A stretch of DNA of 64,000 bases, from contig NZ_CP045144.1 in the NCBI RefSeq assembly GCF_009223885.1, forward strand, positions 3,899,438 through 3,963,437, given 5' to 3'. This DNA is from Ancylobacter sp. TS-1. Its GTDB lineage: Bacteria; Pseudomonadota; Alphaproteobacteria; Rhizobiales; Xanthobacteraceae. The notes below the pieces were generated by a model, which saw only the letters and a list, made by a program, of their open reading frames with translations, did not search any database and was not told where the DNA came from. Of this stretch, positions 38,544 through 44,444 are shown one piece after another; within the stretch, counting starts at the first letter, position 1, and each line of letters begins with the position of its first letter. Made by a program: the position numbers and the translations under genes.

Positions 38544-39104
38544 GTGCATCGGGCGCCGTCAGCTGGAGTCATAGGATTGCCGGTGCTGGCTCTCGCCTCC
38601 GACCTTGGCCACCTGTTTCGCACCGAGCATGAACGCTTGATGCGCGGGATACGCCGTCTGGTGGGCAGCCCGACGACGGCGGAAGATCTCGTTCAGGACC
38701 TGTTCGTCGGCTTGCTGCGCGGCAATGCCTTCGCGGATGCCGAGAACAAGCAGGCCTATCTGGCGCGATGCGCCACCAACATGGCGCTCGACCATCTCCG
38801 GCGCGAGCGGAAGCGTGAGCGGTACATCTGTGGACGGTGCATTTCCGACTGCGAGGTCGCCTGTCCGGTGCCGTTGCAGGACGAGGTGTTGCAGGGCGTG
38901 CAGGAACTGGCGCTCCTGCGTCGCACCATCGACGAACTGCCGCCGAAGTGCCGCGCCGTCTTCCGGCTGTCGCGCGAGCACGGGCTGACCATGAAGGAGA
39001 TCGCCGCCCGCCTCGGTCTGTCCGAGAAGACCGTCGAGAAGCACATCGCGCGCGCCATGGTGCAATGCCGCGAGGTGCTGCGTGCGGCCGGGCGCGCGAT
39101 CTGA
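38544..39104 (+). CDS. FecI-like ECF sigma factor with a four-cysteine linker
   Basis: A 186-residue ECF sigma factor starting at GTG 38544 after GAGGGGAC. The sigma-2 region (about 25-90) has TAEDLVQDLFVGLLRG and NKQAYLARCATNMALDHLRR. The sigma-4 region has LTMKEIAARLGLSEKTVEKH. Between them lies a linker with C96-x2-C99-x3-C103-x3-C107, a spacing suited to binding zinc or an iron-sulfur cluster. Ordinary FecI proteins lack such a cluster. It is followed by a FecR gene and a TonB receptor with a signalling domain, so it should drive that receptor on sensing its ligand. Confidence 0.88.
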   Translation: MHRAPSAGVIGLPVLALASDLGHLFRTEHERLMRGIRRLVGSPTTAEDLVQDLFVGLLRGNAFADAENKQAYLARCATNMALDHLRRERKRERYICGRCISDCEVACPVPLQDEVLQGVQELALLRRTIDELPPKCRAVFRLSREHGLTMKEIAARLGLSEKTVEKHIARAMVQCREVLRAAGRAI

Positions 39105-39186: not shown

Positions 39187-40170
39187 ATGACTGCTCAACG
39201 GCCGAAACCCGGCGTCATCCCCCGCGATGCCGCCTTTGACGCGGCGAGCCGGTGGCATGCGCGCCTGCGCGAGCCGGACGCCGACGCGCAGACGCACGAA
39301 GCGTTTCAGGACTGGCTCGCCTCCGACCCGGCCCATTTCGACGCCTATGAACAGGCCGACCGGCTGTGGGCGGCCATGGGCCCGGCGCCCGGCGCCCGGC
39401 GCGATGAAGCCGCGATCGAGGCATTGGTGGAAGGCGCGGCCCCGCGCCGGAGGCTGGTGCGCGGCATTGTGGCCGGCGTGCTGCTCTGCCTCTCGCTGGC
39501 GGGCGCGGAGTGGGTGCGGCGCGGCGGGCTCGACGATCTGCGCGCGGACCACATAGCGTCCATCGGCGAGCGACAGGCGGTCGAGCTGGCGGACGGTTCG
39601 ATGGTCGAGCTGAACACCGACACCGCCATTGCCGTCGACCTCGATGGTCGGGAGCGCAGCGTCCGGCTTTTCCGCGGCGAGGCCTTCTTCCAGATCGCCC
39701 ACGATCCGCAGCGCCCCTTCGTGGTGCGGACCGGCGACGGCGACGTGCGGGTCACCGGCACGCGCTTCAATGTGCGCGTGCGCGGCGATGTGACGGAGGT
39801 CGGCCTGGTTCAGGGCAGCGTCAGTCTTACCGCCTCTGCCCATTCCGACGTTTCGCTCCGCCTGACGCCCGGTGAGGAAGGCGCCATGACCCCGGATGGC
39901 CTCGGGCCGGTGCGGCCCTTCGAGGCGGATGTCGCGACAGCCTGGCGTGGCGGAAAGATGGTCTTCTTTCGGGCGCCGCTCGGGCAGGTGATCGAGGAAC
40001 TCAACCGCTATCAGCGCGGCCGCATCATGATTCTGAGCGCGCGTGCGCGGGCTCTCCCCGTTACCGGCGTGTTCGACACGCGTGACCCGGCAGCCGCCAT
40101 CGACATGATCGAGGCGACGGTCGGTGTGTCCTCGTTTCGCCTGACCAACGCGCTGATCGTGCTGAGGTAG
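39187..40170 (+). CDS. FecR-like anti-sigma / signal transducer
   Basis: A 327-residue FecR-family protein: a cytoplasmic N-terminal DUF4880-like part (DAASRWHARLREPDADAQ, then FQDWLASDPAHFDAYEQADR), one membrane helix at about 92-108, and a periplasmic FecR domain (ADGSMVELNTDTAIAVDL, FRGEAFFQIAHDPQRPF, VTGTRFNVRV). It would hold the sigma factor in check until the TonB receptor reports ligand. It lies 82 bp after the sigma gene and 107 bp before the receptor. Confidence 0.92.
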   Translation: MTAQRPKPGVIPRDAAFDAASRWHARLREPDADAQTHEAFQDWLASDPAHFDAYEQADRLWAAMGPAPGARRDEAAIEALVEGAAPRRRLVRGIVAGVLLCLSLAGAEWVRRGGLDDLRADHIASIGERQAVELADGSMVELNTDTAIAVDLDGRERSVRLFRGEAFFQIAHDPQRPFVVRTGDGDVRVTGTRFNVRVRGDVTEVGLVQGSVSLTASAHSDVSLRLTPGEEGAMTPDGLGPVRPFEADVATAWRGGKMVFFRAPLGQVIEELNRYQRGRIMILSARARALPVTGVFDTRDPAAAIDMIEATVGVSSFRLTNALIVLR

Positions 40171-40277: not shown

Positions 40278-43200
40278 ATGAGGATGATGTCCACCCGACG
40301 CCTGCGCACGCTTGCGCTTTGCCTTCTGGCCGGAACCGCCTTCGCGGTGCTTCCCGTCGCGACGTCGCGAAGCCTGGCGCAAAGCGGCAGCTCCAGCGTC
40401 GCCCTGTCCATCGCCTCGATGCCGGTCCCGCGCGCCCTCGCCGACCTTTCAGTGCGGGCCGGCCTGCAGGTCCTGTATTCCGGCAGCCGGGCCTACAAGA
40501 TCATGTCGCGGCCGGTGAACGGCACCTATGCCCCGGAAGAGGCCCTGCGGATCATGCTGGCGGGGACGGGCATCAACTGGCGATTTGTCGGCGCCAACGC
40601 CGTGACGATCATGGTGCCGGGGGAAGATGCCGCGGCGGGCGGCGCGGCCCTGCAGGGCATCGATGGCGACGGTGCCATTGCGCTCGATGCGATCGACGTC
40701 ACCGGCCAAGGCTCGGCCGCCGACCGCCCCTTCGAGACGCCGGGCTCGACCAATTTCATCTCCGGCGAGGAGATCGAACGCTTCCCGCCGCAGACGGCCG
40801 GGGCGCTCTTCCAGGGAACGCCCGGCGTTATATCGGGCGGCGGCAATAACGGTGCCTCGATCGACCCCAACATACGCGGCCTTCAGGGCCAGAACCGCGT
40901 CGCCACCACCATTGACGGCTCGCAGCAGTCGACCTCCTCCTATCGCGGCTATTCCGGCATCGACAGCCGCACCTATGTCGACCCCGACCTCATTTCCGGC
41001 ATCACCATCACCAAGGGGCCGGACGGGGCGGTGGCCGGCGCCATCGGCGGCACCATCGCCATGGAGACGCTGAACGTCGAGGATATTCTCGGCTCCGGCC
41101 AGACCTGGGGCGTGCGGGTGCGCGGAGGGCTCGCCAGCAATTCGGTCGCTCCGGTGATCGGCGAGACAGCGGCGGTCTACGGCGGCAGCGACGCCGGCGA
41201 ACTCACCAATGGCAGCTTCGCCGTCGCCGCGCGGGAGGACAATGTCGACGTCATCGGCGCCTTCGTCCGGCGCAAGACGGGCAATTATTTCGCCGGTACG
41301 CAGGGCTCGCTCACCACGACCGACTATCTCGGCGAGACGGTCCCGCTCTCGAATTACGGCCATGGCCAGCTCGTCTACAACACCTCGGAGGATGTCACCT
41401 CGGCGCTGCTCAAGGCGACTGTCCGGCCCACCGACGAGCAGCTCTTCCAGATCGGCTATCTCTATTACGGCAACGAGTTCGGCGAGGTGTCACCCTCCTT
41501 CATCACCGCCGGCAACGAGACCACCTCGCAGATCCCCCTCAGCTCGGTCGAGATCAACCAGGCGACGCTGCGCTACAACTACACGCCGACCGACAATGAT
41601 CTCGTCGACTTCAAGTTCGACGCTTATGCCTCGAACACCGACGAGACCAATATCTTCGCCTCGCTCGGCAAGACGCCCGAGCTCAAGCAGCAGTCCCAGA
41701 ATGTCGGTGTGAAGGCCAGCAACACTTCGCATTTCGCCGTCGCCGGCATGCCCCTCGCCGTGAGTTATGGCGGCAGCTACGTCTATGAGAATGCCCGGCC
41801 GACCGAAGCCTACGACCTGTCCAGCGTCTCCCTCTGGGCCATCCCGGCCAATGGCGAGCGCGAGATCGGCTCGATCTTCGCCCGGGTGAAGTGGGAGCCC
41901 ACCGACTGGCTCGAACTCGGCGCCGGGGTGGAGTACCTGACCTACAGCACCTCCTTCAACGGCATCACCACCTACGGCACGCCGGGCGACCCCTTCACGA
42001 GCTATTCCGGCGAAGGCTTCAGCCCCAGCGCCAGCGTGGTGGTGACCCCGGTCGAGGGCTGGCAGATCTATGGTCAGTATCAGGCCGGCATCCGCCCGCC
42101 GAGCGTGCGCGAGGTCAGCCAGACCCGCAGCGACCAGATCTTCAACGCCGCGCTGCAGGCGGAGGAGGCGAGCAACTGGGAATTCGGCACCAACTTTCTG
42201 CGCGACGACGTGCTGCTGCCGGGCGACAAGCTGCGGCTGAAGCTCGCCTATTTCGACAACACCACGGATAATTACATCGGCCGCGAATTCACCGGCTCTA
42301 TGGGCCTGTTCAACTACGACTTCGTTCGCTTCAGGGGTGTCGAATTCTCCGGCCGCTACGACGCCGGCCGGTTCTTCACCGATTTCGGGATCAACTACTA
42401 CACCGATTTCGAATCCTGCGAGATGGACGGCAACTGCACCGACTACACGCTGTCCGCCGACTTTCTCACCAACCAGATTCCGCCGCGCTTCACCGCCTCG
42501 GTCACGGCGGGCGCGCGCTTCTTCGACGAGCGGCTGACGCTGGGCGGGCGCGTCACCTATATGAGCGAGCGGCTGGCGGAGGTGGAGGCCGATAGCGGCT
42601 TCTTCGCCTGGGTGACCAAGGTGTGGGAGCCCTACACGGTGGTCGACGCTTTCGCGCAGTGGAAGCTGAACAGCCATCTCACCCTCGACATCAGCGTGCA
42701 GAACCTGCTCGACACCTATTATGTCGACGCGCTCAACAACACGGACATGCCCGCTCCCGGCCGCACCTTCATGGCGACGCTCACCGGCACCTTCGGCAGC
42801 GACGAGCCGATCACGCCGCTGCCCATCGGGCTGCGCGCCAATGGCGAGCGCTGGACCGGCCTCTATGCCGGCGGCTCCATCGGCTACGGCTTCGGCTCTA
42901 TCGACGGCACCACGACGCTGGCGGATGGCAGCTACGCGCCGCGGGCCTTCAGCGAGTCGGCCAACGAGACATTCCAGGGCGGCGTCTGGGGCGGTCAGGC
43001 CGGCTATAATTACCAGTTTTCCAATGGCGTCGTGGTCGGCGTCGAGGCGGACCTGCTGCATGCCGGCATGGGCAGCTCCGCCGTTCTCGGCGCCACCGAG
43101 AGCGCGACCCTGATCACCAACCGCATGACGGAGGCGCAGACGGACTATTCCTTCGACTGGCTGGCGACCGTCCGCGCGAAGGCGGGCTACGCCGTCACCG

Positions 43201-43694
43201 ACCAGTTGCTCGTCTACGGCACCGCCGGCGTCGCCTTCCTGCGCGAGACCGAGGAGCGCACGCAATACGTCTCGAATTTCGCCGACGCGACCAATCCGGG
43301 CGGAAACCGGACCGCGCTGAGCTTCTCGGAGACCTCCGCGCGGACCCGCACCGGCTTCACGGTCGGAGGCGGCGCGGAATACGCCATCAACGACCGGTGG
43401 TCGGTCAAGGCCGAGTACGCCTTTGCCGGTTTCGGGGCGGAGAGCTTCAATTTCGGCAAGGCCCGTTCCGGCGTCACCCGCTCCTATTCGACCCGGACTC
43501 AGACCGGCACCGTCTCGGGTGTCCGCAGCGAGACCCTCTGCGCCACACGGGGCGGAAGGTACTGCGAGATCGTGGAGAGGCCGGTCTACGAGACAAAGAA
43601 CTATGTCGGCACCTCCACCATCGCCGACGGTCGCGAGGCCTCGAACTCGGCCTCGTTCCAGGCCATCAAGATCGGCGTCAACTACCGTTTCTGA
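40278..43694 (+). CDS. TonB-dependent receptor fused to a second outer-membrane barrel (Omp25/31-like)
   Basis: A 1138-residue outer-membrane protein from the ATG at 40278 (an earlier in-frame GTG is at 40266). Order: signal peptide (about 1-35); STN signalling domain (about 41-113; ASMPVPRALADLSVRAGLQV); TonB-box-like ALDAIDVTG (135-143); plug (about 150-275; GVISGGGNNGASIDPNIRGL); 22-strand barrel ending at an aromatic, FMATLTGTF, near 839. Instead of stopping, the chain continues through a 19-residue linker into WTGLYAGGSIGYGFG (from 859) and ends SASFQAIKIGVNYRF, the start and end signatures of the 8-strand Omp25/Omp31 porin-like family. The STN domain links it to FecR and the sigma factor. 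Iron or heme is the probable ligand. No internal signal peptide or stop is seen, so this is a real fusion in the sequence given. Confidence 0.87.
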   Translation: MRMMSTRRLRTLALCLLAGTAFAVLPVATSRSLAQSGSSSVALSIASMPVPRALADLSVRAGLQVLYSGSRAYKIMSRPVNGTYAPEEALRIMLAGTGINWRFVGANAVTIMVPGEDAAAGGAALQGIDGDGAIALDAIDVTGQGSAADRPFETPGSTNFISGEEIERFPPQTAGALFQGTPGVISGGGNNGASIDPNIRGLQGQNRVATTIDGSQQSTSSYRGYSGIDSRTYVDPDLISGITITKGPDGAVAGAIGGTIAMETLNVEDILGSGQTWGVRVRGGLASNSVAPVIGETAAVYGGSDAGELTNGSFAVAAREDNVDVIGAFVRRKTGNYFAGTQGSLTTTDYLGETVPLSNYGHGQLVYNTSEDVTSALLKATVRPTDEQLFQIGYLYYGNEFGEVSPSFITAGNETTSQIPLSSVEINQATLRYNYTPTDNDLVDFKFDAYASNTDETNIFASLGKTPELKQQSQNVGVKASNTSHFAVAGMPLAVSYGGSYVYENARPTEAYDLSSVSLWAIPANGEREIGSIFARVKWEPTDWLELGAGVEYLTYSTSFNGITTYGTPGDPFTSYSGEGFSPSASVVVTPVEGWQIYGQYQAGIRPPSVREVSQTRSDQIFNAALQAEEASNWEFGTNFLRDDVLLPGDKLRLKLAYFDNTTDNYIGREFTGSMGLFNYDFVRFRGVEFSGRYDAGRFFTDFGINYYTDFESCEMDGNCTDYTLSADFLTNQIPPRFTASVTAGARFFDERLTLGGRVTYMSERLAEVEADSGFFAWVTKVWEPYTVVDAFAQWKLNSHLTLDISVQNLLDTYYVDALNNTDMPAPGRTFMATLTGTFGSDEPITPLPIGLRANGERWTGLYAGGSIGYGFGSIDGTTTLADGSYAPRAFSESANETFQGGVWGGQAGYNYQFSNGVVVGVEADLLHAGMGSSAVLGATESATLITNRMTEAQTDYSFDWLATVRAKAGYAVTDQLLVYGTAGVAFLRETEERTQYVSNFADATNPGGNRTALSFSETSARTRTGFTVGGGAEYAINDRWSVKAEYAFAGFGAESFNFGKARSGVTRSYSTRTQTGTVSGVRSETLCATRGGRYCEIVERPVYETKNYVGTSTIADGREASNSASFQAIKIGVNYRF

Positions 43695-43871: not shown

Positions 43872-44444
43872 ATGCGCTGTATGATGTTGTGCTTTGCACT
43901 GGTCCTCTCGGGCCTGGCGGCCGCTCCCGGCTTCGTGCAGGAGGCGACGGCAAAGAACTATCTCTGCAACCAGCAATTCGCGCTCTGCACCTCGGCGCCC
44001 TGCGTCCCGCAGCCCGGCAATCCGGACGTCTCGATCTGCGTTTGCGACGTTCAGGAGGGGCCGAACCTCGCAACCGTGGAATGCGACACGGTCAAGCCGA
44101 GCACGGACGCCAACGGCGTTCGCACAGTCTACTCGCAGTTCGCGCTTACCCAGTTCGAGGGCGGCAAGAAGGGGCTGAAGTGTGAAAGCGGAACACCCTG
44201 GTCGCAATGCCTCAACAAGATCTGCACGGTCGATCCCGCCAATCCCGACAAGGCGATCTGCGCCTGCGATGTGGTGCGCACGGGCGCGTGGCAGACGGCC
44301 GGCGGCAATTGCGACACGGCGACCTGCAAGAACGCCTACTGGTCGGGGGCTCTGCTGGCCGATTCCAGAAGCAACGGCGAATTCATGATGGAGCAGCTCA
44401 AGATAGCGAAGTCGCCGGCCGAGGCCTGCCCCGTGCCCAAGTAA
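43872..44444 (+). CDS. Secreted cysteine-rich protein with an internal duplication
   Basis: A 190-residue protein starting at the ATG at 43872 (GGAGAGG upstream), with a signal peptide (MRCMMLCFALVLSGLAAAPG) and 14 cysteines after it. Two halves repeat one pattern: C-x4-C-x11-C-x-C-DV, seen as CTSAPCVPQPGNPDVSICVC followed by DV, and CLNKICTVDPANPDKAICAC followed by DV; both contain P-x-NPD. No known family was recognised. The even cysteine pattern suggests disulfides or metal binding in the periplasm or outside. It is 177 bp after the receptor and may be part of the same iron or metal response, for example as a ligand-binding partner. Confidence 0.78.
   Translation: MRCMMLCFALVLSGLAAAPGFVQEATAKNYLCNQQFALCTSAPCVPQPGNPDVSICVCDVQEGPNLATVECDTVKPSTDANGVRTVYSQFALTQFEGGKKGLKCESGTPWSQCLNKICTVDPANPDKAICACDVVRTGAWQTAGGNCDTATCKNAYWSGALLADSRSNGEFMMEQLKIAKSPAEACPVPK

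What the first reader, a model, noticed from the sequence alone, without database searches (positions are those of the whole stretch)
40278..43694. TonB-dependent receptor fused to a second outer-membrane beta-barrel
The receptor reaches its normal barrel end (FMATLTGTF, near residue 839) and then continues for about 300 residues through a short linker into a domain with the start (WTGLYAGGSIGYGFG) and end (IKIGVNYRF) signatures of the 8-strand Omp25/31 family. There is no stop, start or signal peptide at the junction. Both barrels have periplasmic ends, so a tandem arrangement is topologically possible. I know of no characterised two-barrel receptor of this type. The extra barrel could be a surface adhesin, a ligand-capture element or a membrane-stabilising partner.
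Basis: partly seen in the sequence, partly recalled or inferred. Interest (0 to 1): 0.85.

Follow-up and report, generated by a model that had tools for sequence, protein, structure and literature searches.

The report
Haem receptor carrying a second barrel
A bacterial outer-membrane iron/haem receptor carries a second, smaller membrane barrel at its tail as one continuous protein; the arrangement recurs in related bacteria, and the outward-facing surface of the extra barrel is unusually conserved, which suggests a real job there.

The parts
38544..39104 (+). FecI-type (ECF) sigma factor, 186 aa by ORF call
   Evidence: Sigma70_r2 2.7e-13 and r4_2 5e-18; a BLAST relative lies in 75 of 78 related loci
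39187..40170 (+). FecR-type anti-sigma / signal transducer
   Evidence: PF04773 2.2e-22, DUF4880 2.4e-11; a BLAST relative lies in 77 of 78 related loci
40278..43694 (+). Two-barrel receptor, 1138 aa, one open frame
   Evidence: TIGR01785 TonB-hemin 337.4 bits over cut-off 316.85
40278..40379 (+). Signal peptide (residues 1-34, cleavage inferred after SLA)
   Evidence: read from the sequence; no signal-peptide predictor was run
40464..40613 (+). STN signalling domain, residues 63-112
   Evidence: PF07660 1.9e-8
40731..41054 (+). Plug domain, residues 152-259
   Evidence: PF07715 1.2e-17
40950..40952 (+). Plug Tyr225 (mature Y191), opposite HasR haem ligand His189 by ungapped count
   Evidence: Tyr in 218 of the 218 rows in which my pattern was found, of 242 looked at (8 of 250 rows dropped); the HMMER alignment itself places gaps here
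41106..42794 (+). Receptor barrel, about residues 277-839
42768..42794 (+). Internal beta-signal of the receptor barrel, FMATLTGTF, residues 831-839
   Evidence: aligned with the chain end of unfused relatives; aromatic at the 839 position in 69 of 72 unfused and 93 of 178 fused
42795..42854 (+). Linker, about residues 840-859
   Evidence: low pLDDT, mature 811-820 mean 45
42852..43691 (+). C-terminal 8-strand barrel, residues 859-1138
43455..43631 (+). Long fourth extracellular loop of the C-barrel with a beta-hairpin, residues about 1060-1118
   Evidence: model; fused-specific conserved A1062, R1063, G1065, G1111, G1118 in this loop, R1119 at its edge
43665..43691 (+). C-terminal beta-signal IKIGVNYRF, residues 1130-1138
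   Evidence: last residue F in 174 of 178 fused proteins

Best explanation
It is a HasR-type TonB-dependent haem (or haemoprotein/haemophore) receptor with surface signalling, to which an OmpA/Omp25-like 8-strand barrel was joined, probably once, and then kept, lost and possibly exchanged. Both barrels sit in the outer membrane side by side, joined on the periplasmic side by about 20 residues. Proposed mechanism: substrate is held by the receptor's extracellular loops together with the conserved outer cap of the second barrel. It passes through the receptor with TonB energy, while the STN domain reports occupancy to FecR and the FecI-type sigma factor. Because the second barrel ends the chain, it also carries the C-terminal beta-signal for BAM, which relaxes the demand on the receptor barrel's last strand. 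Shown here: open frame, domain order, predicted folds, recurrence, sigma-FecR neighbourhood, haem genes near relatives, fused-specific conservation of the outer cap, relaxed internal beta-signal. Inferred: haem as this receptor's substrate, ligand contact by the cap, insertion of both barrels, BAM order.
Against: No experiment. HasR's second haem ligand region (H603) has no His in the window receptor. The own genome shows no HasA (neither search had a working positive control) and no HemS; its one haem oxygenase match lies beside another TonB receptor, not here. The genes directly downstream in the window are not conserved. The conserved cap could dock on the receptor rather than touch ligand; the model's inter-domain error was not available. 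Fused tails are one clade, so part of their shared conservation may be common descent; controls for divergence only. A paired, phylogeny-aware test of the aromatic loss was not significant (median p 0.375), and parsimony also infers 5 returns to an aromatic on fused branches. The Mantel correlation between the two domain trees is only 0.44, so co-inheritance is not strict.
Confidence: 0.45

Rival explanations
1. The second barrel is mainly an assembly and stability module: it brings a strong C-terminal beta-signal and anchors the receptor in the outer membrane, with no contact to substrate.
For: The terminal Phe is kept in 174 of 178 fused chains at the new end and relaxed at the old one, 85 of 178 non-aromatic, with 14 against 0 inferred losses. 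A review notes that changes in the beta-signal can prevent efficient folding and that several outer-membrane proteins have been suggested to carry such a motif only in internal strands (PMC13067283, passages).
Against: It does not explain why the fused-specific conserved residues lie on the extracellular face. Unfused relatives exist without it.
Confidence: 0.25
2. The second barrel docks onto the receptor barrel or neighbouring outer-membrane proteins and organises them; the conserved cap is a protein-protein interface, not a ligand site.
For: The cap holds charged or polar residues conserved in 91-99% of fused tails (mature E859, R960, Q962, E984, R1085) in a surface that is less conserved in stand-alone relatives. 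pTM 0.79 for the whole chain is compatible with a defined arrangement.
Against: No inter-domain error or coordinates were available to see contacts.
Confidence: 0.18
3. Surface adhesin or another independent function (as in Ail/Opa-type small barrels, recalled) merely co-expressed by fusion.
Against: The clade of fused tails is tied to a HasR-type receptor near iron/haem genes; its outer face is conserved rather than variable.
Confidence: 0.07
4. Neutral fusion: a stop codon was lost between neighbouring genes and the tail does nothing.
For: The tail evolves faster than the receptor (dN/dS 0.56-0.62 against L014 and L015) and is patchy (at least 3 of 397 genomes).
Against: The same junction occurs in families from Xanthobacteraceae to Caulobacteraceae and Erythrobacteraceae; dN/dS below 1 in the four pairs computed; fused-specific conservation.
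Confidence: 0.05

Closest known systems
HasR (haemophore/haem receptor, Serratia marcescens; PDB 3csl)
   Same: STN, plug and receptor barrel; best sequence and fold match; sigma and anti-sigma genes directly upstream as in hasI-hasS-hasR (PMC9249621, passages)
   Different: HasR ends at the receptor barrel; here about 300 more residues form a second barrel. HasR's His189 stands opposite a Tyr by ungapped count and the window has no His in the His603 loop (ligand roles recalled).
Omp25/Omp31-type outer-membrane protein, PF13505
   Same: Start WTGLYxG, end NYRF, 8 strands, shared conserved periplasmic half
   Different: No own signal peptide; attached to a receptor; extracellular face more conserved.
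OmpA transmembrane domain
   Different: OmpA carries a periplasmic domain after its barrel (recalled); here the barrel is itself the C-terminal domain after another barrel.
Has operons with a haemophore (hasI-S-R-A-D-E-B)
   Same: L029, L070 and L018 have sigma, FecR, fused receptor, HasA-like gene, type I exporter and adaptor in that order
   Different: The window locus has no such genes after the receptor; no haemophore was found in its genome (without a positive control).

Membership tests
HasR-type TonB-dependent haem receptor | Family profile over curated cut-off | tested here: met
   TIGR01785 337.4 bits, cut-off 316.85
HasR-type TonB-dependent haem receptor | STN signalling domain and plug | tested here: met
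   PF07660 and PF07715 over cut-off
HasR-type TonB-dependent haem receptor | HasR receptor fold | tested here: met
HasR-type TonB-dependent haem receptor | Sigma/anti-sigma pair next to the receptor | tested here: met
HasR-type TonB-dependent haem receptor | Haem-coordinating His189 and His603 | tested here: inconclusive
   Plug position holds an invariant Tyr by ungapped count, while HMMER's own alignment gaps it; no His in the window's loop; where my loop pattern was found, His in 20 of 54 fused and 4 of 20 unfused rows
HasR-type TonB-dependent haem receptor | Partner haemophore HasA | tested here: inconclusive
   Not found in own genome, but neither search had a positive control; HasA-like gene in L018, L029, L070, that is 3 of 76 loci
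HasR-type TonB-dependent haem receptor | Chain ends at the receptor barrel | tested here: not met
   About 300 extra residues, hence a variant architecture
HasR-type TonB-dependent haem receptor | Haem transport in vivo | not testable with these tools
   -
PF13505 / Omp25-Omp31-type barrel | Profile over cut-off | tested here: met
   46.6 bits, cut-off 28.7
PF13505 / Omp25-Omp31-type barrel | 8-strand barrel fold | tested here: met
PF13505 / Omp25-Omp31-type barrel | Stand-alone protein with its own signal peptide | tested here: not met
   No start or signal peptide seen at the junction; it is a domain of the family, not a free member

The most novel reading that the evidence does not exclude
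A class of single-chain multi-barrel outer-membrane proteins exists in Alphaproteobacteria. In the HasR-type members the appended barrel is a fixed co-receptor: its conserved outer cap shares in haem/haemophore capture, and the BAM beta-signal has moved from the transport barrel to the appended barrel, so one targeting event delivers two barrels. Related strings of two to four barrels (for example P0049, receptor plus four PF13505 barrels) would be further members of the same class.
Probability: 0.35. Interest if true: 0.85.

Novelty: new variant of a known kind. Interest (0 to 1): 0.68.

Why it matters
Known outer-membrane barrels are, to my knowledge (recalled), one barrel per chain or multimers of chains. 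A conserved two-barrel chain raises a sharp question for BAM: how are two barrels with two beta-signals folded from one polypeptide, and why does the internal one decay? It also suggests that a receptor can carry its own accessory barrel for substrate capture. Both can be tested with one gene in a laboratory strain. Fused and unfused relatives, sometimes in one locus (10 of 76 loci), are a natural experiment.

Tried and rejected
Artefact by missed stop or frameshift: rejected, because relatives from other genomes share the junction. Conserved partner gene downstream in the window: the Cys-rich secreted protein (43872-44444) had no BLAST relative in 78 loci and the amidohydrolase in 1 of 78. 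HasA or HemS in the own genome: not found (only one search had a working control). Recent origin from an own-genome paralogue: seven own-genome barrels were put in the tail tree and none fell in the fused group; database stand-alone barrels outside that group are mostly under 40% identical. Simple single gain or loss on the receptor tree: 11 changes needed; the quick tree has long branches, so 6 of 143 rows were dropped. The independent-pairs test of the aromatic loss did not reach significance. A first script classification put 14 fused rows among the unfused, because the receptor profile ran into the tail; one search replaced it. In one search the truncated loci L019 and L020 were labelled unfused; they were left out of the counts (76 of 78 loci). 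A first conservation control used only columns present in the window; one search repeated it with each clade's own columns. VIA-align on the whole chain listed only the receptor part, so the C-barrel was folded and searched alone; Foldseek's own superpositions for it were poor (rmsd above 10), so I rely on VIA-align. Genome surveys scored at most the two best candidates per genome, so their counts are lower bounds. Literature: ten searches; the listings shown held no title or abstract start that reports a two-barrel TonB receptor. Passages only were read of PMC13067283, PMC8292188, PMC9249621 and PMC7142613. Most subscription journals are not in that library.

Full report
What is there. The frame from ATG 40278 to the stop at 43692-43694 encodes 1138 residues without interruption. 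Pfam finds, in order, STN (63-112), plug (152-259), the TonB receptor barrel (389-810) and an OMP_b-brl barrel, PF13505 (854-1052), all over their curated cut-offs. NCBIfam places residues 137-839 in TIGR01785, TonB-dependent haem/haemoglobin receptors, over cut-off. The best solved relative by sequence is HasR. Upstream lie a FecI-type sigma factor (38544-39104) and FecR (39187-40170).

Not an artefact, but patchy. A search with the tail region returned 165 proteins (120 listed), many with plug, receptor barrel and PF13505 together. A search with the receptor part returned 140 (120 listed), mostly fused down to about 45% identity, then mixed. Among 250 sequences covering at least 75% of the receptor profile, 178 have a tail that hits the tail profile and 72 do not. 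This set holds database proteins and locus ORFs, was not de-duplicated and was collected partly by the tail, so it is no prevalence. In the named loci the length beyond the receptor end is 0 to about 15 residues or 233-322 (receptors with contig-cut ends aside). Named loci with the fusion include Ancylobacter, Azorhizobium, Rhodomicrobium, Afipia, Bradyrhizobium, Rhodopseudomonas, Hyphomicrobium, Kaistia, Agrobacterium, Hoeflea, Enterovirga, Brevundimonas, Asticcacaulis, Sphingopyxis, Croceibacterium and Sandaracinobacteroides. In even samples of genomes it is rare: a HasR-like match at E 1e-100 in 29 of 397 genomes of the order, with the full fused length in 3 including the window's own; in the class sample 5 of 385 including the own genome, which alone was fused. 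These are lower bounds, because at most two candidates per genome were scored. The window's own genome has 3 TonB receptor matches and 9 PF13505 places, 8 over cut-off, and only this frame joins the two.

Origin. On a quick tree of the receptor part (143 rows at 75% identity, 83 fused and 60 not) the fused state needs 11 changes; without six long-branch rows it is again 11. On a quick tree of the tail barrels (79 fused tails, 96 stand-alone entries of which 7 are from the own genome, 23 barrels from other multi-barrel proteins), 78 of 79 fused tails fall in one group with SH-aLRT 100, together with six entries counted as stand-alone. Four of these six begin inside the domain, so are probably fragments; P0217 begins like a protein with its own signal peptide; P0255 was not looked at. 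The exception is L060. So the appended barrel probably has one source, with later losses and perhaps exchange: the two domain trees agree locally (79 rows, mean overlap of five nearest neighbours 0.57, chance 0.06) but only moderately overall (Mantel r 0.44). L075, unfused but inside a fused group, ends TTTLGGE, as a truncated fusion would.

The outer face is conserved. Comparing 79 fused tails with 90 stand-alone barrels, 61 columns are at least 75% conserved in the fused set. Of these, 39 are shared with stand-alone barrels and 38 of the 39 lie on the periplasmic half; 22 are specific to the fused set and 21 of the 22 lie on the extracellular half (sides from the model's strands with a periplasmic start). 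Among them are E859, R960, Q962, E984 and R1085 (mature numbering), kept in 91-99% of fused tails. In a control with clades of similar mean identity (0.40-0.42), 13-17% of outer-half columns are conserved in six nested fused clades and 7-9% in three nested stand-alone clades, while the periplasmic half is slightly less conserved in fused ones (39-41% against 44-49%). Higher-identity clades show the same tendency. This argues against a passive tail.

The beta-signal has shifted. At the position of F839, unfused relatives have an aromatic residue in 69 of 72 cases; fused ones keep an aromatic there in 93 of 178, otherwise mostly Leu or Ile. At the new end, 174 of 178 have Phe. By parsimony on the receptor tree the aromatic was lost 14 times on fused branches (exposure 17.4 substitutions per site in the aromatic state), never on unfused branches (29.2), 3 times on branches where fusion is inferred and once on a branch of fusion loss; 5 returns are inferred on fused branches. 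The root was set at the midpoint. A stricter paired test with 11 pairs was not significant. The window itself keeps Phe. A review, read in passages, says that the C-terminal beta-signal is important for efficient assembly and that several proteins have been suggested to carry such a motif only internally (PMC13067283). That BAM is now engaged mainly by the tail barrel is inference.

Substrate. A FecR relative is found in 77 and a sigma-factor relative in 75 of 78 related loci. Of 76 loci with a classifiable receptor, haem oxygenase lies in 20 of 51 with a fused receptor and 13 of 25 with unfused only, often directly downstream, and TonB, ExbB and ExbD recur. In L029 and L070 (Bradyrhizobium) and L018 (Afipia) the fused receptor is followed by a HasA-like protein, a type I exporter and its adaptor. 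The profile of the three HasA-like proteins (A3) finds RTX modules by its C-terminal part (best 3.7e-7) and HasA structures by its N-terminal part (best 1.1e-5); the L070 protein alone finds HasA only at 0.0043, and PF06438 was not reported for any of the three. The gene order matches hasI-hasS-hasR-hasA-hasD-hasE described for Serratia (PMC9249621, passages). The plug Tyr is invariant in the 218 rows where my pattern was found and stands opposite HasR His189 if no gap is allowed. The loop that holds His603 in HasR has a His in 20 of 54 fused and 4 of 20 unfused rows where a pattern was found, but not in the window. For the window's own receptor, haem is therefore likely but not shown: its genome has one haem oxygenase match, beside another receptor.

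Context. Among the 332 fetched proteins 70 contain two or more barrels recognised by a profile of stand-alone PF13505 proteins (collected by similarity, so no prevalence). Examples with other partners are P0049 (receptor plus four), P0074 (three plus OprB), P0082 (TpsB-type plus two) and P0110 (two, with omptin). The window's protein may thus be one case of a wider habit of joining barrels.

Verdict. A real, recurring two-barrel HasR-type receptor whose added barrel appears selected on its outer face. The best explanation is an accessory capture module that also supplies the assembly signal. Each functional step still needs an experiment.

Noticed in passing
P0049, P0056, P0061, P0069, P0074, P0077, P0082, P0096, P0110, P0222 and others: Single chains with two to four PF13505-type barrels, some with a TonB receptor, OprB, TpsB-type or omptin barrel as well. 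A broader multi-barrel class seems to exist.
   Followed up: partly
L029:10408-11262, L070:10515-11333, L018:10520-11239: HasA-like haemophore candidates with an RTX-like C-terminal part, next to a type I exporter and the fused receptor, not reported by PF06438.
   Followed up: partly
43872-44444: Secreted-looking Cys-rich protein of 190 aa with two similar blocks ending in CVCDV and CACDV (read by eye), no Pfam match and no BLAST relative in 78 related loci.
   Followed up: no
G000:C1:2647892-2650014 (L010, L090): The own genome's only haem oxygenase match (part of the profile) lies next to a different TonB receptor, probably a second haem locus.
   Followed up: no
L075 (Hyphomicrobium sp. 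LHD-15), receptor end: Unfused receptor ending TTTLGGE inside a fused group: looks like a loss of the tail barrel.
   Followed up: partly
P0217: Barrel that begins like a protein with its own signal peptide and groups with the fused tails: a possible free relative of the source.
   Followed up: no
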